Source: Tausonia pullulans
Taxonomy: Eukaryota; Basidiomycota; Tremellomycetes; Cystofilobasidiales; Mrakiaceae
NCBI GenBank assembly: GCA_951802195.1
Contig: OX637620.1
Coordinates: forward strand, 992,001 to 1,056,000
Direction of reading: 5' to 3'
DNA length: 64,000 nucleotides
Below are positions 42,638 to 50,777 of the stretch, in pieces. Under the pieces are notes generated by a model. The model did not search any database. It was not told the DNA's origin and worked only from the letters and a program-made list of their open reading frames with translations. Within the stretch, counting starts at the first letter, position 1, and every line of letters begins with the position of its first letter. A program made the translations under genes and the position numbers.

Positions 42638-45294
42638 ATGGCGAACACGTCGACCGCTGCCGCCGCCGCTACCTCAGCTGCTGCCGCTGCTGCTGCCAGC
42701 CCGAACCTCTGGGACGAGATCCTCGACAGCGTCTCCGGCCGCAAGGCGACTTCACGCAAGAATCTCATCGTCCTTGGTGAGTGCGCGCGCGTCCCCGTAG
42801 CTGGTCTTGCCTGCGCGTGATGCTGACATCATTAAACCCCATCTCAGGCGAACCCCAGACGGGCAAGTCGACTCTGCTGAGCCACCTGCTCAGGGCGGCC
42901 CCGGGAGGAAGCTCTAGCCAAGGTGCGTCCGTCGTCGACTCTTTCTCTCCTTCCCCTCGTGAGCGCGTGCAACACTGACCGTCGGAGACAATGCGGACGC
43001 GCCAGTCAAGCCGATACCGCTGCCTTCGACGGTGAAGGCAGTCCATAATCCTCGGCTCGATCTGGCCATCGGCTACGAATGGGTTGACGTTCGGGATGAG
43101 GGCGACGAAGGTGCGTCGTCGCGCTCTAGCCTCCTCCTCTTACCTGCCTCCCTTCGCCTGCCCTCCGTCCTTCCTTGAATTGCTTTTAAGACATCTCCTT
43201 CATTTTATGCTCACATATCTCTCTCCGACCCACAATTCATAGAAACCCTCCCGCCGCTGTCCATCTACACGCCTCCGTCCTCCCACCCGTCGCTACTTCA
43301 CCTTCTACCCCTCTCTCTCGCCTCCTCCCCTTCGCCTGCCACGTCGGGCAGCAGCAGCCAGGACGCGTCCTCAGCCTCCCTCCTCGCCGATACAGCTGTC
43401 GTGATCGTTCTAGACTGGACGAAACCGGCAAGTATGGTCGAGCAGCTCCTCACTTGGCTCGAGTGGCTCGACGAGTGGGCCGCGTCAGTCGCCGGACGTG
43501 AAGGCGGCGAGGAGAACCGGGAACGACGTGGGTTACTTACTCACTTGCTCTCTTATCGCTGACGATCTTGGAGCTGACTGAATGACTATCCTCATAGTCC
43601 AGCACCATCTACAGCACTATAACGAACCCCCGCCGCTGCCCTCCCCGGGGACGACCTCGGCGGCTCCCAACGCGTCGTCCGCTGAGGGTTCGCTTCCTGC
43701 CGACCTCCTCCCGCCCGTGTCAACGTACATCCCGTTAAACGCTGAGGTTCTCCCTCTCGGTCCTGGTACTCTCACGCGGAACCTGTACGTGTTGCGACGT
43801 GGCTCAAGTAACCGACACTTCCCTGCTGACTTGCCGCGTCGTCTTGCCTCATAGTTATGGCGTACCAATCACGATCGTCTGCACCAAGGCCGACCAGATC
43901 GACGTCGTCGCCGAAGAGCTTGGCTTCGGTGGTCCCTCGGGCGTCGGTGGCAAGGGCATCGGAGGCAAGGGCGGGTGGGAGGAGCGGACCGACTGGATCG
44001 GCCAAGTCTTGAGGCTTGTAGCGCTCATGTGTAAGGACCCTCTCTCTCTCCTTCCCGTTCCGCGTCTGTGCTCAAACCTCTCCTGCCGTTATAGACGGAG
44101 GATCTCTCTTCTACACATCTCAGGCCCACCCAGAGACTTTCTCCCTTCTCCGGGCCTATCTCATCCACCGGCTCTTTTCCCCGCCACCCAACCTCTTGAC
44201 CGCCGCTCTCACGTCTTCCTCCTCCTCAGATCCACCTCCAACGACAGCCACAGCGAGTTCCTCCACACGCTTCCCTTATCCCCACCGTGCCAACGTCCTC
44301 GACAGAGACCGCGTCGCTGTTCCAGCAGGGTGGGATTCGTGGGGCAAGATATGCGTCCTCCGAGAAGGCTTCGAGCCCGAGCGCGTCACGGCCGCTTGGG
44401 GGACAAGTCTCCGGAGGCGGAAAGCCGAGAGGGGTCCGACGGCAGGAGAGGTTGATGAGGAGGAAGAGGATGTGGAGGATCTTTGGGCGGGCTTGCTTCC
44501 GGAAGTTGGGAACGATCCAGTGGTGCGATTCGCTTGCTTGATTTGTCTCCTATTCTCCTCTGATGCCTTTCCTTGTCTACAGAATGGTCCCTTCTCGCGA
44601 ACGACGACCGCAGACCTCGATCAAAACTTTCTCGCCCGCCACCACGATCTCCTTCAAAAGGACCCGGCCCGGGACCCACGGCAGTCGTTCCGAACGCCCG
44701 CCACTTCTTCTTCACTCGGCACCACGTCATCGCTCGTGGGCGTCGTCGGGCCCATGGGCGGTGGAGCTGCAGGGCTCAGCCTGCCCGGCGTCGAGCGGGC
44801 AATGGCGGAGATGGAGGGCAGCGGAGGCCGACGGGGAAGTTCAACTCCCACGACAGGTGGTGGAGGTGCTAGCTCCATCGTCGAGAGTCTCTTTGCAGGT
44901 GGAAATAACAACGCAACGCTCTCGCGACCAGCCCTTCCGACGAGGGAGTACTCGAGCTCGGCGTCGCTCACGTCGACACTCAAGACGGCTGTCGCTGGTG
45001 GCGAGGGGCTAACTTCGCCCTCGGCGTCCTCGTCGCCGGTCGTCCCGGCGTTCTCGCCATCGCTGACGACAGGTGGGGGATCTACGAATGGCCAGCCGCC
45101 GCCTTCAACGGAGGATCTCGTGAGTTCATCCCTTCTCTTCTTCGAAGAACTCACAGAGGACCGATGACACTTTCCTGGTTATCCAGCACAACTTCTTCCA
45201 ATCGCTCCTCACAGCAAGGAAGAGCACGGGCGTCGCCTCGCTTGCGGCTTCGTCCTCCTCGCCAGCGAACAACCCCGCGACGTCGCCTCCGTAG
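42638..45294 (+). CDS. Cytoplasmic dynein light intermediate chain
   Basis: Subunit that links the dynein motor to cargo adaptors, used in nuclear and organelle movement. Starts at ATG 42638 with an Ala-rich N-terminus, then NLWDEILDSVSGRK and the GTPase-like P-loop NLIVLGEPQTGKSTLL. The G-domain-like fold continues with LDLAIGYEWVDVRDE, TAVVIVLDWTKPASM with QLLTWLEWLDEWA, YGVPITIVCTKADQID and GGSLFYTSQAHPETF. The second half holds AVPAGWDSWGKICVLREGFEP. The C-terminal third is Ser/Thr/Gly-rich and disordered, with QNFLARHHDLLQKDPA and a terminal helix LHNFFQSLLTARK. Stop TAG 45292-45294. Confidence 0.92.
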
Positions 45295-46636
45295 CAATGC
45301 CATTCTCCCTCTTTCGGCTGCTTCCCCATCATGTTTTCTGATTCTTCATTTTGTGTGACCCGTCCCCATCTATCTACTACCACCCCGTTACCGTCGATAC
45401 CTCTTCCCCCTTACGCTCTATTTGTCGAGCGTTTACTCACAATGATGTTCACAGATGAAGAACGTCGAGCGAGCGGGGTATCTCATCATCGTGACATAGT
45501 CCGTCCCTCTGGGCGGCACATGGCTTGACGGGAAGTGCAACCTGAAGGAAATAAGGACTGGTCACACGATTCGATGTCAGGAACCAGCTCCTGACGAAAG
45601 CTTAGAGCATGCTGACGCAAGAATGTGGAGACGAGGGGGAGAAGCTCCGATGCGAGGTTTTGGCCATCTCATCATCTTTCTGCGAAGCCGCCGCCGTCAT
45701 TGCCGTCAACCAGATGCACATGGCCATGACCTTGCGCCTGGTCTGGTACACCTTGAGATCTGGCTAAGAATATGGGGTGGGTCAGCCCTGCCATCCAGCC
45801 AGAGGGTGGACGGATCGGGGTGCCCCGCTTCCATCCTCCTCAAGACGTAGAGACTGTCGATCCCAGATGAATAAACTCAGCCATAAACTTGCCCCGGCCT
45901 GGTTGCGAGCTTGAGATCCGATAACAGAGCGTGTCGGGGGGTCGTACGAGTAGTAGTAACGAAAGGGCGTCCGGCTTACGCCGCAGTATCATCCCGCGTC
46001 GCGCCGGTAGCAAAAGAAATCAAGGAAGAGGGTAAGGCCCACCACGTGGGCAGTAGCCAGATAGAGAAAGTTCATGGGCGAATCGTGTGGGATGGTCGGG
46101 CGGAGGAAGTGGAAGAAACGGGGCCAGCAATCTCCCAGCCAGCCAACCAAAGTGCGCCTGATTCCGGAGACGGGCCGGAGTTGGACCGGGGAAGAGGCGG
46201 TGATTCGAAGATAGCGACCGCCGGGCTGGGAAGAAGAGTAGGGAACGTGCCTCGAGGGACGAGGAGAAGGCAGATATGTTGCTGGTCTCGTGTGCTGAGG
46301 GGGATTCGCCTGCTGCATCGTCGACACCAACAAGATTGAGGTGATTGAGCGCCCTCACTGGCTCTCTCCTTGATGCGGCTGCATTCGCGCGTCCGCCAGA
46401 GAAGGAATCGTCTGGCTGGAAATTGACAATTCCCAGCCGCCCTGCCGCCTCGTTTGTCAACACTCGTGGGAGCGGAAAGCGGGGGAGGAGAGAGGAGTTG
46501 CGGGAGCCCAGCCTCGTTCGGTCAAGCGCGGGATCTTCCTCTCCCTTTCCAGGCACTCGACCTGACTCGCCTCCCTCCTCCCAACCGCCATCACCCCCAC
46601 CTCCTGCTCCCCCTTCTCTCTCTCTCTCTAGACACC
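45295..46636. other. Intergenic region upstream of glutamine synthetase
   Basis: 1.34 kb between two co-oriented genes. Its middle holds the inverted relic copy of the glutamine synthetase 5' region (separate entry). The last 100 bases before the glutamine synthetase ATG are strongly CT-rich. Minus-strand frames near 46020-46330 have no recognisable product. Confidence 0.6.
45662..45945 (-). pseudogene. Inverted, decayed duplicate of the 5' part of the glutamine synthetase gene
   Basis: Read on the minus strand, two stretches match exon 2 of the downstream glutamine synthetase gene. Block B (45763 down to about 45662) starts with CCAGATCTCAAG, exactly as at the live intron 1/exon 2 junction. 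It continues with ACCAG, GCAAG, TCATGGCC, CATCTGG, GACGGC and CTTCGCAG in the same order as 46841-46920. Block A (45917 down to 45856) has ATCTCAAGCTCG, ACCAGG, GGGGCAAG, ATGGC, GAGT, ATCTGG and ATCGAC. Between the blocks is CCACCCTCTGG (45799-45809), also found in live intron 1 (46792-46802) at nearly the same distance from the junction. Indels destroy the frame. A weak resemblance to exon 1 precedes block A. It lies about 0.7-1 kb upstream of the live gene in head-to-head orientation. Confidence 0.82.
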
Positions 46637-48965
46637 ATGTTGCTCACGCACAACCCCACGCTCCTCGCCCCGTGTAAGTTTCAGCCCAGCTGGTCTGGAT
46701 CGACGGCGACACTGCCCTCCGGCACACGGAGGAGTGTGGGGCTGTCACCAGCGCGACTTAACACCAGCGCGTTGTCGCTACAACCGCCTATCCACCCTCT
46801 GGTTCAATGGTGATGGAACTAACCTACTCTCCTCTCATCACCAGATCTCAAGCTCGACCAGGGGGGCAAGATCATGGCCGAGTACATCTGGATCGACGGC
46901 GACGGCGGCTTTCGCAGCAAGACGGTGAGGCTCAACATCTGAGTTTTGTTCTTGTGTCCGCAAGTAGTGGCTCTCTGGGAACTCGTTGAAGGTGGTCGTC
47001 CGCTCGACTTTGTGTCACCCTCTTTGCCTCCCTCAGGAGCAGACAGGAAGGTGGCCGAGCGCACGAACTGAACTGTGCGCGGTGGCCTGCGCCCCATCGA
47101 GGTCCGGCCTGGGCCGAGGGGTCAAGCGGCGCGACGATAAGACCAGCCCCTCTGGCCCATCTCTTGTTCACATGGGTTCAAGCCCATCGCATGGCGTGCA
47201 TTCCAGTCTTCTCTCTTGGCCTCGCCTGCCCCGTTGCTTTGAGATGAAGCGATGTGCTTGCCTGTGAACTCGGTGGTGGCGGCCTCGTCGGTCATGTGCT
47301 CCGTTCCCTTCGGCTCCTTCCTGGCTCCTCCCCGCTATTACCCGGTTCGCATGCCTTTCTCCCCCTTTGGCCTCCATGTCATATACGTTCTCCAATTGTA
47401 ATTGGAAGACCGACCGAGGAGCGAAAGCATGGTCTTCTCGCTCGAGGGGAACGGCTCTGGCTGTGAGGGGTAGTCGCGTGCCACCTCTCTACTCTTGTTG
47501 TTCTCTGCCCTGGTCTATTGAACCTGCGTCATATTTCCCCTCGGGCTTGTTGTTGACGCTCGGCTTGTTCATTCTTGCAGACGACCGTCGACCACGCCGT
47601 GAACGACGTTTCTGAGCTCAAGGGTTAGTCCTTTTCTCCGTCCCTGCTGCTGTACTAGGAACGGAATAAGACGCCACAAAGCCCGCCCCATCGGGTCGGA
47701 CTCTGTTCCCGCGCGCCCAATCGATCTTCCCCTAATAAGTGCTGACCAGTCTCTGCCCTCCCATAGAGTGGAACTTCGACGGCTCGTCCTGTAACCAGTG
47801 GGTTGTGCATTCGCTCAGATGTAGTCCCCGCTCCCAGCTCACCACCATCTCTCTGCTCCAGGGCCCCCGGCCATGACTCCGATGTCTACCTCCGCCCCGT
47901 TGCCATCTTCAAGGACCCCTTCCGCGGCGGCGACAACCTCCTCGTTCTCTGCGAGACGTATAACTCGGACGGCACCCCGAACAAGACCAACTTCCGCGCG
48001 CAGTGCATCAAGACGATGAAGGACGTCGAGCACCACGACCCCTGGTTTGGCCTCGAGCAGGAGTATTCGCTTCTCGACTCGGACGGCTGGCCCCTCGCCT
48101 GGCCCAAGGGTGGATACCCGGGCCCCCAGGGACCGTGAGTCGAGCGTTATCACTTTGTTTTTGTATGTTATTCTTAGTTTTGCTGACGCGTCGTCCTTTG
48201 AGCTCCTCAGGTACTACTGCGGTGTTGGAGCCGGTAAGGTCTTCGCCCGGGATCTCATCGAGGCTCACTACCGCGCATGCCTCTATGCCGGTATCGAGAT
48301 CGCCGGCATCAACGCCGAAGTCATGGCCTCGCAGTGGGAGTTCCAGGTTGGCCCATGCAAGGGCATGGAGAGTGAGTGGCTGAGATCGCTCTCTCTGGGT
48401 TCAACAAGTTCAGACTGACGCCCTGCCTCTCTCCAGTGGGTGATCAGCTCATGATTGCCCGCTACCTCCTCATCCGCACCGCCGAGGAATGGGGCATCAA
48501 AGTCACGTTCCACCCCAAGATCTTCAAGGATGGTGACTGGAACGGTGCAGGCTGCCACACCAACTACTCGACCAAGGAGATGCGCACCGCGGGAGGCATG
48601 AAGGCTATCGAGGCCGCCATCGCCAAGCTCGAGAAGAAACACCTCGAGCATATCGCCGTCTATGGAAGCGACAACGAGCACCGTCTCTCTGGAAAGTGAG
48701 TTTTCCGACCTCTTCCTACTTTCCCTTTGCCATTGTTCTGTTAGATTAGGTACTGACATGCTTTCTGACTCATTTTTGTATCGCCAGGCATGAGACGGGT
48801 CACATCGGCCAGTTCTCGTGGGGTGTCGCCGACCGCGGCGCGTCCATCCGCATTCCTCGCCATGTCGCCGCCCAGGGCTTCGGGTACCTCGAAGACCGTC
48901 GCCCTGCTTCGAACATTGACCCGTACCAGGTTACCTCTATCATTTGCGAGACGACGCTCCTTTAA
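46637..48965 (+). CDS. GLN1: Glutamine synthetase, type II (eukaryotic)
   Basis: ATP-dependent synthesis of glutamine from glutamate and ammonium, the main entry of ammonium nitrogen. Exons begin 46637-46673, 46845-46924, 47581-47623, 47767 and onward. Motifs: [56 protein letters not shown] (metal-binding Glu), [66 protein letters not shown] and the C-terminal [14 protein letters not shown]. Length and motifs are those of an intact type II enzyme. Intron 1 (46674-46844) contains a 17-base exact match to exon 2, and intron 2 (46925-47580) is 656 bases, by far the longest of this gene. An inverted relic of the 5' region lies upstream. Confidence 0.96.
46694..46710 (+). repeat. Exon-2 fragment inside intron 1 of glutamine synthetase
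   Basis: TCTGGATCGACGGCGAC occurs here in intron 1 and again, identically, in exon 2 at 46887-46903 (17 of 17 bases, 193 bases apart). Together with the upstream relic it suggests that intron 1 descends from a duplicated piece of exon 2. Confidence 0.7.
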
Positions 48966-50777
48966 GCGTCAGACGACGAACCCAAACCGATCCCTCATGG
49001 CGCGCCCGTGTCCGCGCTCTCCCGTGCCTCATCTCCTTTCCGCCTGCCCTCACAGACACATCCACACGCCCCTTAATAGTCTTTCCTTCAATACACTCTC
49101 TTGTCCCCCTCTGTTTCGTTTTTCCCTTCACTTTGGCCTCGGTTTGGGTTCTCGAGGGGAGCTTTCTGCAACCCTCGAGCGATGATTACATAGTCACTTA
49201 ACTTTGTGTTAGAGACGCAAAGAGAACTCCGCTCGACCCTGTGCATCTCCTCTATCAATTTGGCGTTTGTGTCCCTTTCCTCTTGAGATGTGACGAGCGA
49301 GAGCGCGAGATGATGGTGTACACATGGATAGGAGCGAGTTCAGGCTGGTCTGAGAGAGGAGCGGCTGGAGGTACATGCCGTCCTCAAGAGGCTCGTGGAA
49401 CGTGACCTCACAGAGCTGGGGTGGGTACGCCGGGTGGGAAAGGAACGGGGTAAGGCGTCTACAAAGGGAGGGAGGGAGGGCAATGGGAAGAAACCGCCTA
49501 CGAAACGGACGATCGATCTTGTTCTGCAAAGGTAGCGACTGCCTTCACTCGATCTCCCGATCGAGGGGAAGCTCGGCGCCCTCTCTGCGATTTCCGCTTT
49601 AACGACGTCCTCCAGAGAAGGCTGGGAAACAATAGTGGCGATATTGCCTGAAACGAGATTGATTTTCCCTTTTTTTTTTGTGATGGGAGAGCGAACGTCG
49701 AAGGTTGGGAGATTTGTGAGTACAACAAAGAGGAGGGCCAAGTGTCGATTCTGATCGCAATAGGTGCGGAAATTTTGACAGACCATTGACATGTCACAAA
49801 ATTGGGACCCCAAAAGTTGTGAGTGTTGGGTCAGGAACGGCTTTGTTTTACCCCTGACGGGATGTGCGAAATTTGATCGTTGCGAGAGAGCGTGAAGACC
49901 GAAGGTTATTCTTCTCACGGTGCAATGAGCGACCTGGAAAGGACGTCGCAGCCAATTTTGTGATGTCCTTCAGTCCAGGTTATCAACGCCTGTTCTCATC
50001 CGCAACAAAATTGAAGGGATATAGCCCTTATCTCGCAGAGACGCCGGTCGGTGGAGCAGGTAGTCGAGAGCGACTTGCGGTCGTCCAGTAGGCGAGGGGT
50101 CGACTAGAACACTTTGGCTGGGAAGCCATGGATGAAGATCAACAGCGGTAAAGGAGGTTTCGCGCTGAAGACTGGGGCTGTGAAGCCGGCAAGACAAAGG
50201 CAAACTCATTGAATCCAGGCATGTGGAAAGGACAATCTCGAGGAACAACGGGTCAGCCATGCAAGCTCACCCCTCTTCCTCTCACGACACGCGATCGGCC
50301 CATTGCCAGCTTCAGACAGAGTTGCAGGGCTGGACCCCCATGATGAGAAAGGGAAAATGGTTGAGAATACCAGCTGGAATGATACGGGTCGCGAGAATAT
50401 AAACGTGAGTCGAAGGCCGGCTAGCGCTGCTGGCCAGTAAGTCATTTGTCAGAGTTTTAGCCGTCCGGAGACCGTAGCAATGTAGATGGAGGTCCTCTGG
50501 GACACTGGAGAGGAGTGAGCGGGGTAACATGCGAGAGAGCCGGGATGATGTTTATAGAGCCATATCACAGGGGAACGCGGCGCGCCCTAGTAATCGCGCC
50601 AAGGCCCGGGATTATGCGAGGCTTAACCCACGACTAACCTGTCGTCGGTTCAATCGATTTCGGGCCGAGGCCGTCTGCCCCTTCTCTGCCCGAACGACCA
50701 CCTCCGTCATCCGTCTCTCTCTTTCAGTCCTTCTCCGATTCATTTTCGCCCTAGTCGGGCGCTCCCATATCTTTGCC
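48966..50777. other. Intergenic region between glutamine synthetase and isoleucyl-tRNA synthetase
   Basis: 1.8 kb, the longest gap in the window. The first 200 bases should be the glutamine synthetase 3' region. Several minus-strand open stretches exist (49209-49529, 49560-49918, 50312-50530). One pair can be joined by a good 50-base intron, but I recognise no protein (see the separate entry). There is a T-run near 49668 and an imperfect hairpin near 49795-49822. The right end is the promoter of the synthetase gene. Confidence 0.5.
49209..49918 (-). CDS. Possible unrecognised minus-strand gene or gene remnant
   Basis: Not a firm call. Reading leftward, a segment with QPSLEDVVKAEIAERAPSFP has gene-like codon use, and a later segment reads LSHPAYPPQLCEVTF then HEPLEDGMYLQPLL. 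The second can be joined to TFAEQDRSSVS by a 50-base intron with a GTAGGC donor, a pyrimidine tract and a TTTGTAG acceptor. The first segment is in a different frame, and I could not find a clean junction. It could be the 3' part of a small gene convergent with glutamine synthetase, a decayed gene, or chance. Confidence 0.25.

What the first reader, a model, noticed from the sequence alone, without database searches (positions are those of the whole stretch)
45662..45945. Inverted relic of the glutamine synthetase 5' region sits upstream of the live gene
On the minus strand, two blocks match exon 2 of the glutamine synthetase gene in the right order, with indels that break the frame. Block B reproduces the intron 1/exon 2 junction (CCAGATCTCAAG). 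The spacer carries CCACCCTCTGG 35 bases from that junction, versus 38 bases in the live intron. The relic and the live gene are head-to-head about 1 kb apart. Transcription through both would yield complementary RNA segments of about 60-90 bases, so besides being a fossil duplication it could be a source of antisense or hairpin RNA against glutamine synthetase. The regulatory idea is inference; the homology is seen directly.
Basis: partly seen in the sequence, partly recalled or inferred. Interest (0 to 1): 0.75.

Follow-up and report, generated by a model that had tools for sequence, protein, structure and literature searches.

The report
Decayed inverted copies of glutamine-synthetase exon
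Upstream of a yeast-like fungus's glutamine synthetase gene lie two worn, back-to-front copies of the gene's second exon, most likely a harmless scar of DNA copying; a role as regulatory RNA is possible but nothing here supports it.

Summary
The homology is real. On the minus strand, 45763-45668 (A) and 45918-45856 (B) match glutamine synthetase (GS) exon 2 at 62.6 and 46.4 bits; 0 of 1000 shuffles and 0 of 300 window controls reach either. Correction: A and B are not successive pieces of exon 2. Both begin at its start, so they are two copies. A spans the exon plus an intron 1 tail in register; B covers two thirds. A 17-nt exact direct repeat of exon 2 also sits in live intron 1. Exon 1, promoter and intron 2 show no detectable copy. 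A looks non-coding (codon-position substitutions 7:3:3) and shows no bias towards RNA pairing (4 wobble-keeping, 4 pair-breaking transitions). A second GS gene has no relic. An inverted 60-nt copy of a U2 snRNA segment upstream of U2 suggests a general mutational process. A plus-strand read-through RNA would pair A with exon 2 (75 expected pairs) and a Dicer-like gene exists, but Argonaute was not found and no transcript data exist here. Best reading: a decayed local inverted duplication; function unsupported.

The parts
45668..45763 (-). Block A: decayed inverted copy of all of GS exon 2 with both splice-site edges (5' splice site GT changed to AT)
   Evidence: BLASTN 62.6 bits against 46841-46929; 0 of 1000 shuffles, 0 of 300 controls; 74 of 88 ungapped columns identical
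45764..45811 (-). Tail of intron 1 copied with block A, including CCACCCTCTGG
   Evidence: 9 of 2000 shuffles, 4 of 2000 window segments
45856..45918 (-). Block B: second inverted copy of the first two thirds of GS exon 2
   Evidence: BLASTN 46.4 bits against 46844-46897; 0 of 1000 shuffles, 0 of 300 controls; 51 of 54 ungapped columns identical, 5 insertions
46694..46710 (+). 17-nt exact direct copy of exon 2 (46887-46903) inside live intron 1
46845..46924 (+). Live GS exon 2, the source
   Evidence: gene model
46637..48965 (+). Live glutamine synthetase gene, 8 exons, 353 aa
   Evidence: gene model; homologues
45563..45573 (+). Left arm of an 11-nt perfect inverted repeat enclosing A and B; meaning unknown, may be chance
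46079..46089 (-). Right arm of the same 11-nt inverted repeat

Best explanation
A short segment of the GS gene (the last ~45 nt of intron 1 plus exon 2) was copied in reverse orientation into the intergenic space about 1 kb upstream, leaving two copies of exon 2 (A and B) that have since decayed without function. The likeliest mechanism is local template switching during DNA replication or repair. Shown: the copies, their orientation, their limits, and A's decay. Inferred: the copying mechanism, the number of events, and the lack of function.
For: Matches far above chance. A carries intron tail and both exon edges, so the source was DNA rather than spliced mRNA. Exon 1, promoter and intron 2 show no significant match. 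A's substitutions by codon position 1, 2, 3 are 7, 3, 3, so no coding constraint is visible, and its 5' splice site has lost its GT. No other copy of the relic was found in the 23.9-Mb genome at the sensitivity of the DNA search, and none beside the second GS gene. A second inverted gene fragment, 60 nt near the 3' end of U2 snRNA about 340 nt upstream of U2, lies in the 200 kb sampled, and a direct exon 2 fragment lies in intron 1: local copying is not unique to this spot. Template switching is described as making local reverse-complement copies (abstract and opening of PMC8794818; passages of PMC7954356).
Against: B has 5 insertions and 0 deletions against only 3 substitutions, odd for slow neutral decay; error-prone copying could explain it but was not tested. 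Two copies of one exon plus a third fragment need more than one event or a complex one, and tests for a single ancestral unit failed. The ~1 kb reach is longer than the within-one-replication-fork events in the passages I read. No DNA of a near relative was available, so conservation could not be excluded. In the 252 kb of the survey outside the first 20 kb of contig C1, only this pair and the U2 pair are gene-fragment copies, so the process, if general, is not frequent.
Confidence: 0.78

Rival explanations
1. A working hairpin or antisense element: a plus-strand RNA that starts upstream of A reads through into GS, A pairs with exon 2 and either feeds Dicer or masks the splice sites of exon 2 (80 nt, so skipping it shifts the frame).
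For: A:exon 2 pairing predicted in a 1.3-kb plus-strand RNA, 75.4 expected pairs; duplex energy of A with exon 2 beats 195 of 195 window controls and B 196 of 196. Dicer-like domains in the genome.
Against: Pairing is expected of any 76% inverted copy. No pair-keeping bias: 4:4 transitions in A, 0:2 in B. B does not pair in the fold. No Piwi match at E up to 10, RdRP and PAZ not found, without a working control. No transcript evidence. No relic at the second GS gene.
Confidence: 0.07
2. The copies arrived in direct orientation or on a small mobile element, and the segment 45563-46089 was flipped or inserted between the 11-nt inverted repeats CACACGATTCG.
For: The perfect 11-nt inverted repeat encloses both blocks and the word occurs in the window only there (2 matches, 0.04 expected).
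Against: Chosen after the fact. By my own rough count (no call) about 0.2 such 11-nt pairs are expected in 1.35 kb. I saw no target-site duplication by eye. The segment is single-copy in the genome.
Confidence: 0.1
3. Remnant of a whole second GS gene that once stood head-to-head with the live one, the rest lost.
For: Orientation, intron tail and exon edges.
Against: No exon 1, promoter or intron 2 remnants; the best further match to the GS gene is chance level (27.4 bits, 51 of 1000 shuffles); exon 2 is present twice.
Confidence: 0.05

Closest known systems
Template-switch mutations (local reverse-complement copying; MMBIR for larger events)
   Same: Local, short, inverted copies of nearby DNA; mixed direct and inverted pieces
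   Different: The copy lies ~1 kb away and is decayed, so switch points cannot be read; no ancestral sequence was available
Inverted-duplication origin of hairpin or microRNA loci in plants (abstract of PMC3237417)
   Same: An inverted fragment of a protein-coding gene that could pair with its source
   Different: The source gene itself is the second arm, the loop is about 1.1 kb, and no small RNA or transcript is known
Unprocessed pseudogene fragment
   Same: Decayed partial copy with intron sequence, frame-breaking indels and a lost splice site
   Different: Only one exon, in two copies, inverted next to its source

Membership tests
Unprocessed pseudogene fragment | Homology to a gene above chance | tested here: met
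   0 of 1000 shuffles and 0 of 300 controls for A and for B
Unprocessed pseudogene fragment | Intron sequence retained | tested here: met
   Tail of intron 1 beside A, 9 of 2000 shuffles, 4 of 2000 segments; not shown beside B (286 and 157 of 2000)
Unprocessed pseudogene fragment | Loss of coding constraint | tested here: met
   A: codon positions 7, 3, 3 and frame-breaking indels; B too few substitutions (3) to tell
Template-switch inverted duplication | Local reverse-complement copy | tested here: met
Template-switch inverted duplication | Switch points readable against an ancestral sequence | not testable with these tools
   no DNA of a near relative held
Hairpin-RNA or microRNA locus from inverted duplication | Both arms in one transcript, with 20-24 nt RNAs | not testable with these tools
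   no RNA data
Hairpin-RNA or microRNA locus from inverted duplication | Arms can pair | tested here: met
   75.4 expected pairs A:exon 2; B:exon 2 about 0
Hairpin-RNA or microRNA locus from inverted duplication | Pairing kept by selection | tested here: inconclusive
   Wobble-keeping to breaking transitions 4:4 in A, 0:2 in B; one genome, small numbers
Hairpin-RNA or microRNA locus from inverted duplication | RNAi machinery in the genome | tested here: inconclusive
   Dicer_dimer and RNase III matches on C2; Piwi not found, control rang only in an archaeon; RdRP and PAZ not found, control silent
Mobile element carrying an exon | Several copies in the genome | tested here: not met
   window 45480-46120 matches only itself at E up to 10

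The most novel reading that the evidence does not exclude
This fungus has a recurrent process that writes short reverse-complement fragments of genes a few hundred to a thousand bases upstream of them (GS exon 2 twice, a U2 snRNA segment once; that both genes are strongly transcribed is assumed, not shown). Where such a fragment is transcribed together with its gene it pairs with it; at GS, A could mask both splice sites of exon 2.
Probability: 0.1. Interest if true: 0.5.

Novelty: new member of a known kind. Interest (0 to 1): 0.22.

Why it matters
As a relic it is a small, clean example of local inverted copying that also caught intron sequence, with a possible second case at U2 in the same genome. 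If such copies proved frequent and transcribed, they would be raw material for antisense or hairpin control of housekeeping genes in a fungus. Nothing here shows that step.

Tried and rejected
Intron 1 gained by tandem duplication of exon 2: considered because of the 17-nt repeat in intron 1. Set aside because the second GS gene appears, read by eye, to have an intron at the same place (its 5' splice site did not look canonical to me), and because the flanks of the 17-mer do not align above chance (199 and 445 of 3000 shuffles). A gapped alignment of exon 2 + intron 2 start with exon 1 + intron 1 that includes the 17-mer is moderately unusual (4 of 1000 shuffles, 16 of 937 segments).

One ancestral unit [exon 2'-spacer-exon 2] copied whole: the order of pieces fits, but the stretch between the anchors does not align above chance (388 of 3000 shuffles); the 40 nt after the 17-mer against the 40 nt after B are borderline against the window (225 of 3000 shuffles, 71 of 3000 segments). 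A and B as a tandem duplication inside the relic: 48-nt flanks not alike (upstream 910, downstream 1927 of 2000 shuffles); 25 nt just upstream borderline against the window (314 of 2000 shuffles, 50 of 2000 segments).

A GS exon 5 fragment at 45454-45470: chance level (51 of 1000 shuffles, 25 of 300 controls). Rfam on 44800-49100: two sub-threshold snoRNA matches. Sigma-70-type promoter scan: not meaningful for a fungus. GS against the plasmid collection: two weak bacterial matches. One search printed only the self-match and told nothing. Paper searches on GS with antisense in basidiomycetes (9 papers), Cystofilobasidiales with RNAi (1), inverted exon duplication with siRNA in fungi (2) and a partial GS copy in yeast (0) gave, in their listings alone, nothing on this case; none of those papers was opened.

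Full report
Setting. The window is G000:C1:992001-1056000 of a 23.86-Mb genome in 21 contigs. The live gene is a glutamine synthetase (GS) of 8 exons, 46637-48965, plus strand, 353 aa, intact. The closest named full-length proteins among the 120 listed of 7996 are from Phaffia rhodozyma (83%) and Mrakia frigida (82%), so this is a basidiomycete probably near Cystofilobasidiales (order name recalled). The upstream plus-strand gene looks to me like a dynein light intermediate chain, with its stop near 45294 (by eye, no search), leaving about 1.3 kb between the genes.

The observation. BLASTN of 45295-47000 against the window gives 45763-45668 (A) against 46841-46929 at 62.6 bits and 45918-45856 (B) against 46844-46897 at 46.4 bits, both inverted. 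Comparing the intergenic region 45295-46636 with the GS gene, neither score is reached by any of 1000 dinucleotide shuffles or 300 window segments. With the low-complexity filter on, A is the only repeat pair in the window at E up to 0.01, and B falls out of that list. A and B also match each other (0 of 1000 shuffles, 0 of 945 segments).

Anatomy. Both blocks start at the beginning of exon 2, so they are two copies and not two pieces in order. A runs from the intron 1 3' splice site to the intron 2 5' splice site, whose GT has become AT. Beside A, the tail of intron 1 aligns in register (9 of 2000 shuffles, 4 of 2000 segments); beside B it does not (286 and 157 of 2000). A wider test, exon 1 plus intron 1 against all of 45764-46020, is not significant (289 of 1000 shuffles, 355 of 952 segments), so the intron claim rests on the register. 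Exon 1, promoter and intron 2 have no significant counterpart (174, 945 and 113 of 1000 shuffles; intron 2 start against A's downstream flank 302 of 2000). Intron 1 of the live gene carries a 17-nt exact copy of exon 2 in direct orientation; 3000 shuffles reach at most 13 nt and 2787 window segments at most 14. So exon 2 seems to have been a donor about three times.

Decay. A: 74 of 88 ungapped columns identical, 3 insertions, 1 deletion, and 7, 3, 3 substitutions at codon positions 1, 2, 3. B: 51 of 54, 5 insertions, no deletion. The excess of insertions in B is unexplained and depends on the alignment. In a plus-strand RNA, transitions that keep a wobble pair and those that break it are 4:4 in A and 0:2 in B: no sign of selection for pairing, but numbers are small.

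Elsewhere in the genome. DNA searches found no other copy of the relic; their sensitivity is limited, since one search also missed exon 2 of the second GS gene, which a direct BLASTN matches at 45.5 bits. That gene lies on C13, appears by eye to share the position of intron 1, has no match to the relic region and no repeat of its own at E up to 0.01. In 272 kb (window, 20 loci of 10 kb from one end of contig C1, one locus of 8 kb) local pairs of at least 40 bits within 4 kb were 16 rows: 10 in the first 20 kb of C1 (not identified), 3 palindromes, a tRNA-Ala pair, the GS pair A, and an inverted pair in L024. The last is 60 nt near the 3' end of a U2 snRNA gene (L024 3906-4094, minus) copied in reverse about 340 nt upstream of it, 52 of 60 identical, alignment score 80 against at most 29 in 480 controls. 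A second gene with an inverted fragment upstream points to a mutational process rather than to GS regulation.

RNA idea. One plus-strand RNA 45650-46940 is predicted to pair A with exon 2 (75.4 expected pairs) and B practically not; the duplex energies of A and of B with exon 2 beat 195 of 195 and 196 of 196 window controls. This needs a transcript starting about 970 nt before the ATG. A divergent minus-strand RNA would be sense and could not pair. Dicer-like domains exist: Dicer_dimer at C2:1698021-1698299 (24.8 bits, cut-off 23.7) and RNase III at C2:1699755-1700015 (over the cut-off with its neighbours), same strand; single pieces of the latter score weakly or not at all in Pfam. Piwi was not found even at E up to 10; RdRP and PAZ were not found, with silent controls. 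These negatives are weak because the search reads exon by exon.

Literature. Template switching can create reverse-complement repeats (PMC8794818, abstract and opening; PMC7954356, passages). Inverted duplication is a proposed source of plant microRNA genes (PMC3237417, abstract and outline).

Loose end. An 11-nt perfect inverted repeat, CACACGATTCG, encloses A and B at 45563-45573 and 46079-46089 and occurs nowhere else in the window (2 matches, 0.04 expected). It may mark an inversion or an element end, or be chance.

Verdict. A real, decayed, local inverted duplication of exon 2, in two copies, one with an intron 1 tail. Function is unsupported. The mechanism of copying is inferred.

Noticed in passing
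L024 4434-4493 (G000:C1:104434-104493): Inverted 60-nt copy (52 of 60 identical) of a segment near the 3' end of a U2 snRNA gene, about 340 nt upstream of that gene's 5' end.
   Followed up: partly
L034 (G000:C13:342001-350000): Second glutamine synthetase gene, 82% identical over residues 164-353; read by eye, its exon 2 is split by an extra intron.
   Followed up: partly
window 45563-45573 and 46079-46089: 11-nt perfect inverted repeat enclosing both relic blocks, found nowhere else in the window.
   Followed up: partly
window 45856-45918: Block B differs from exon 2 by five small insertions, no deletion and only three substitutions, an odd pattern for neutral decay.
   Followed up: no
L027 6475-6590 and 7807-7922: Perfect 116-bp inverted pair, each arm carrying a tRNA-Ala (AGC) gene.
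   Followed up: yes
G000:C2:1698021-1700015: Dicer-like gene (Dicer_dimer and RNase III matches on one strand), while no Piwi match was found in the genome.
   Followed up: partly
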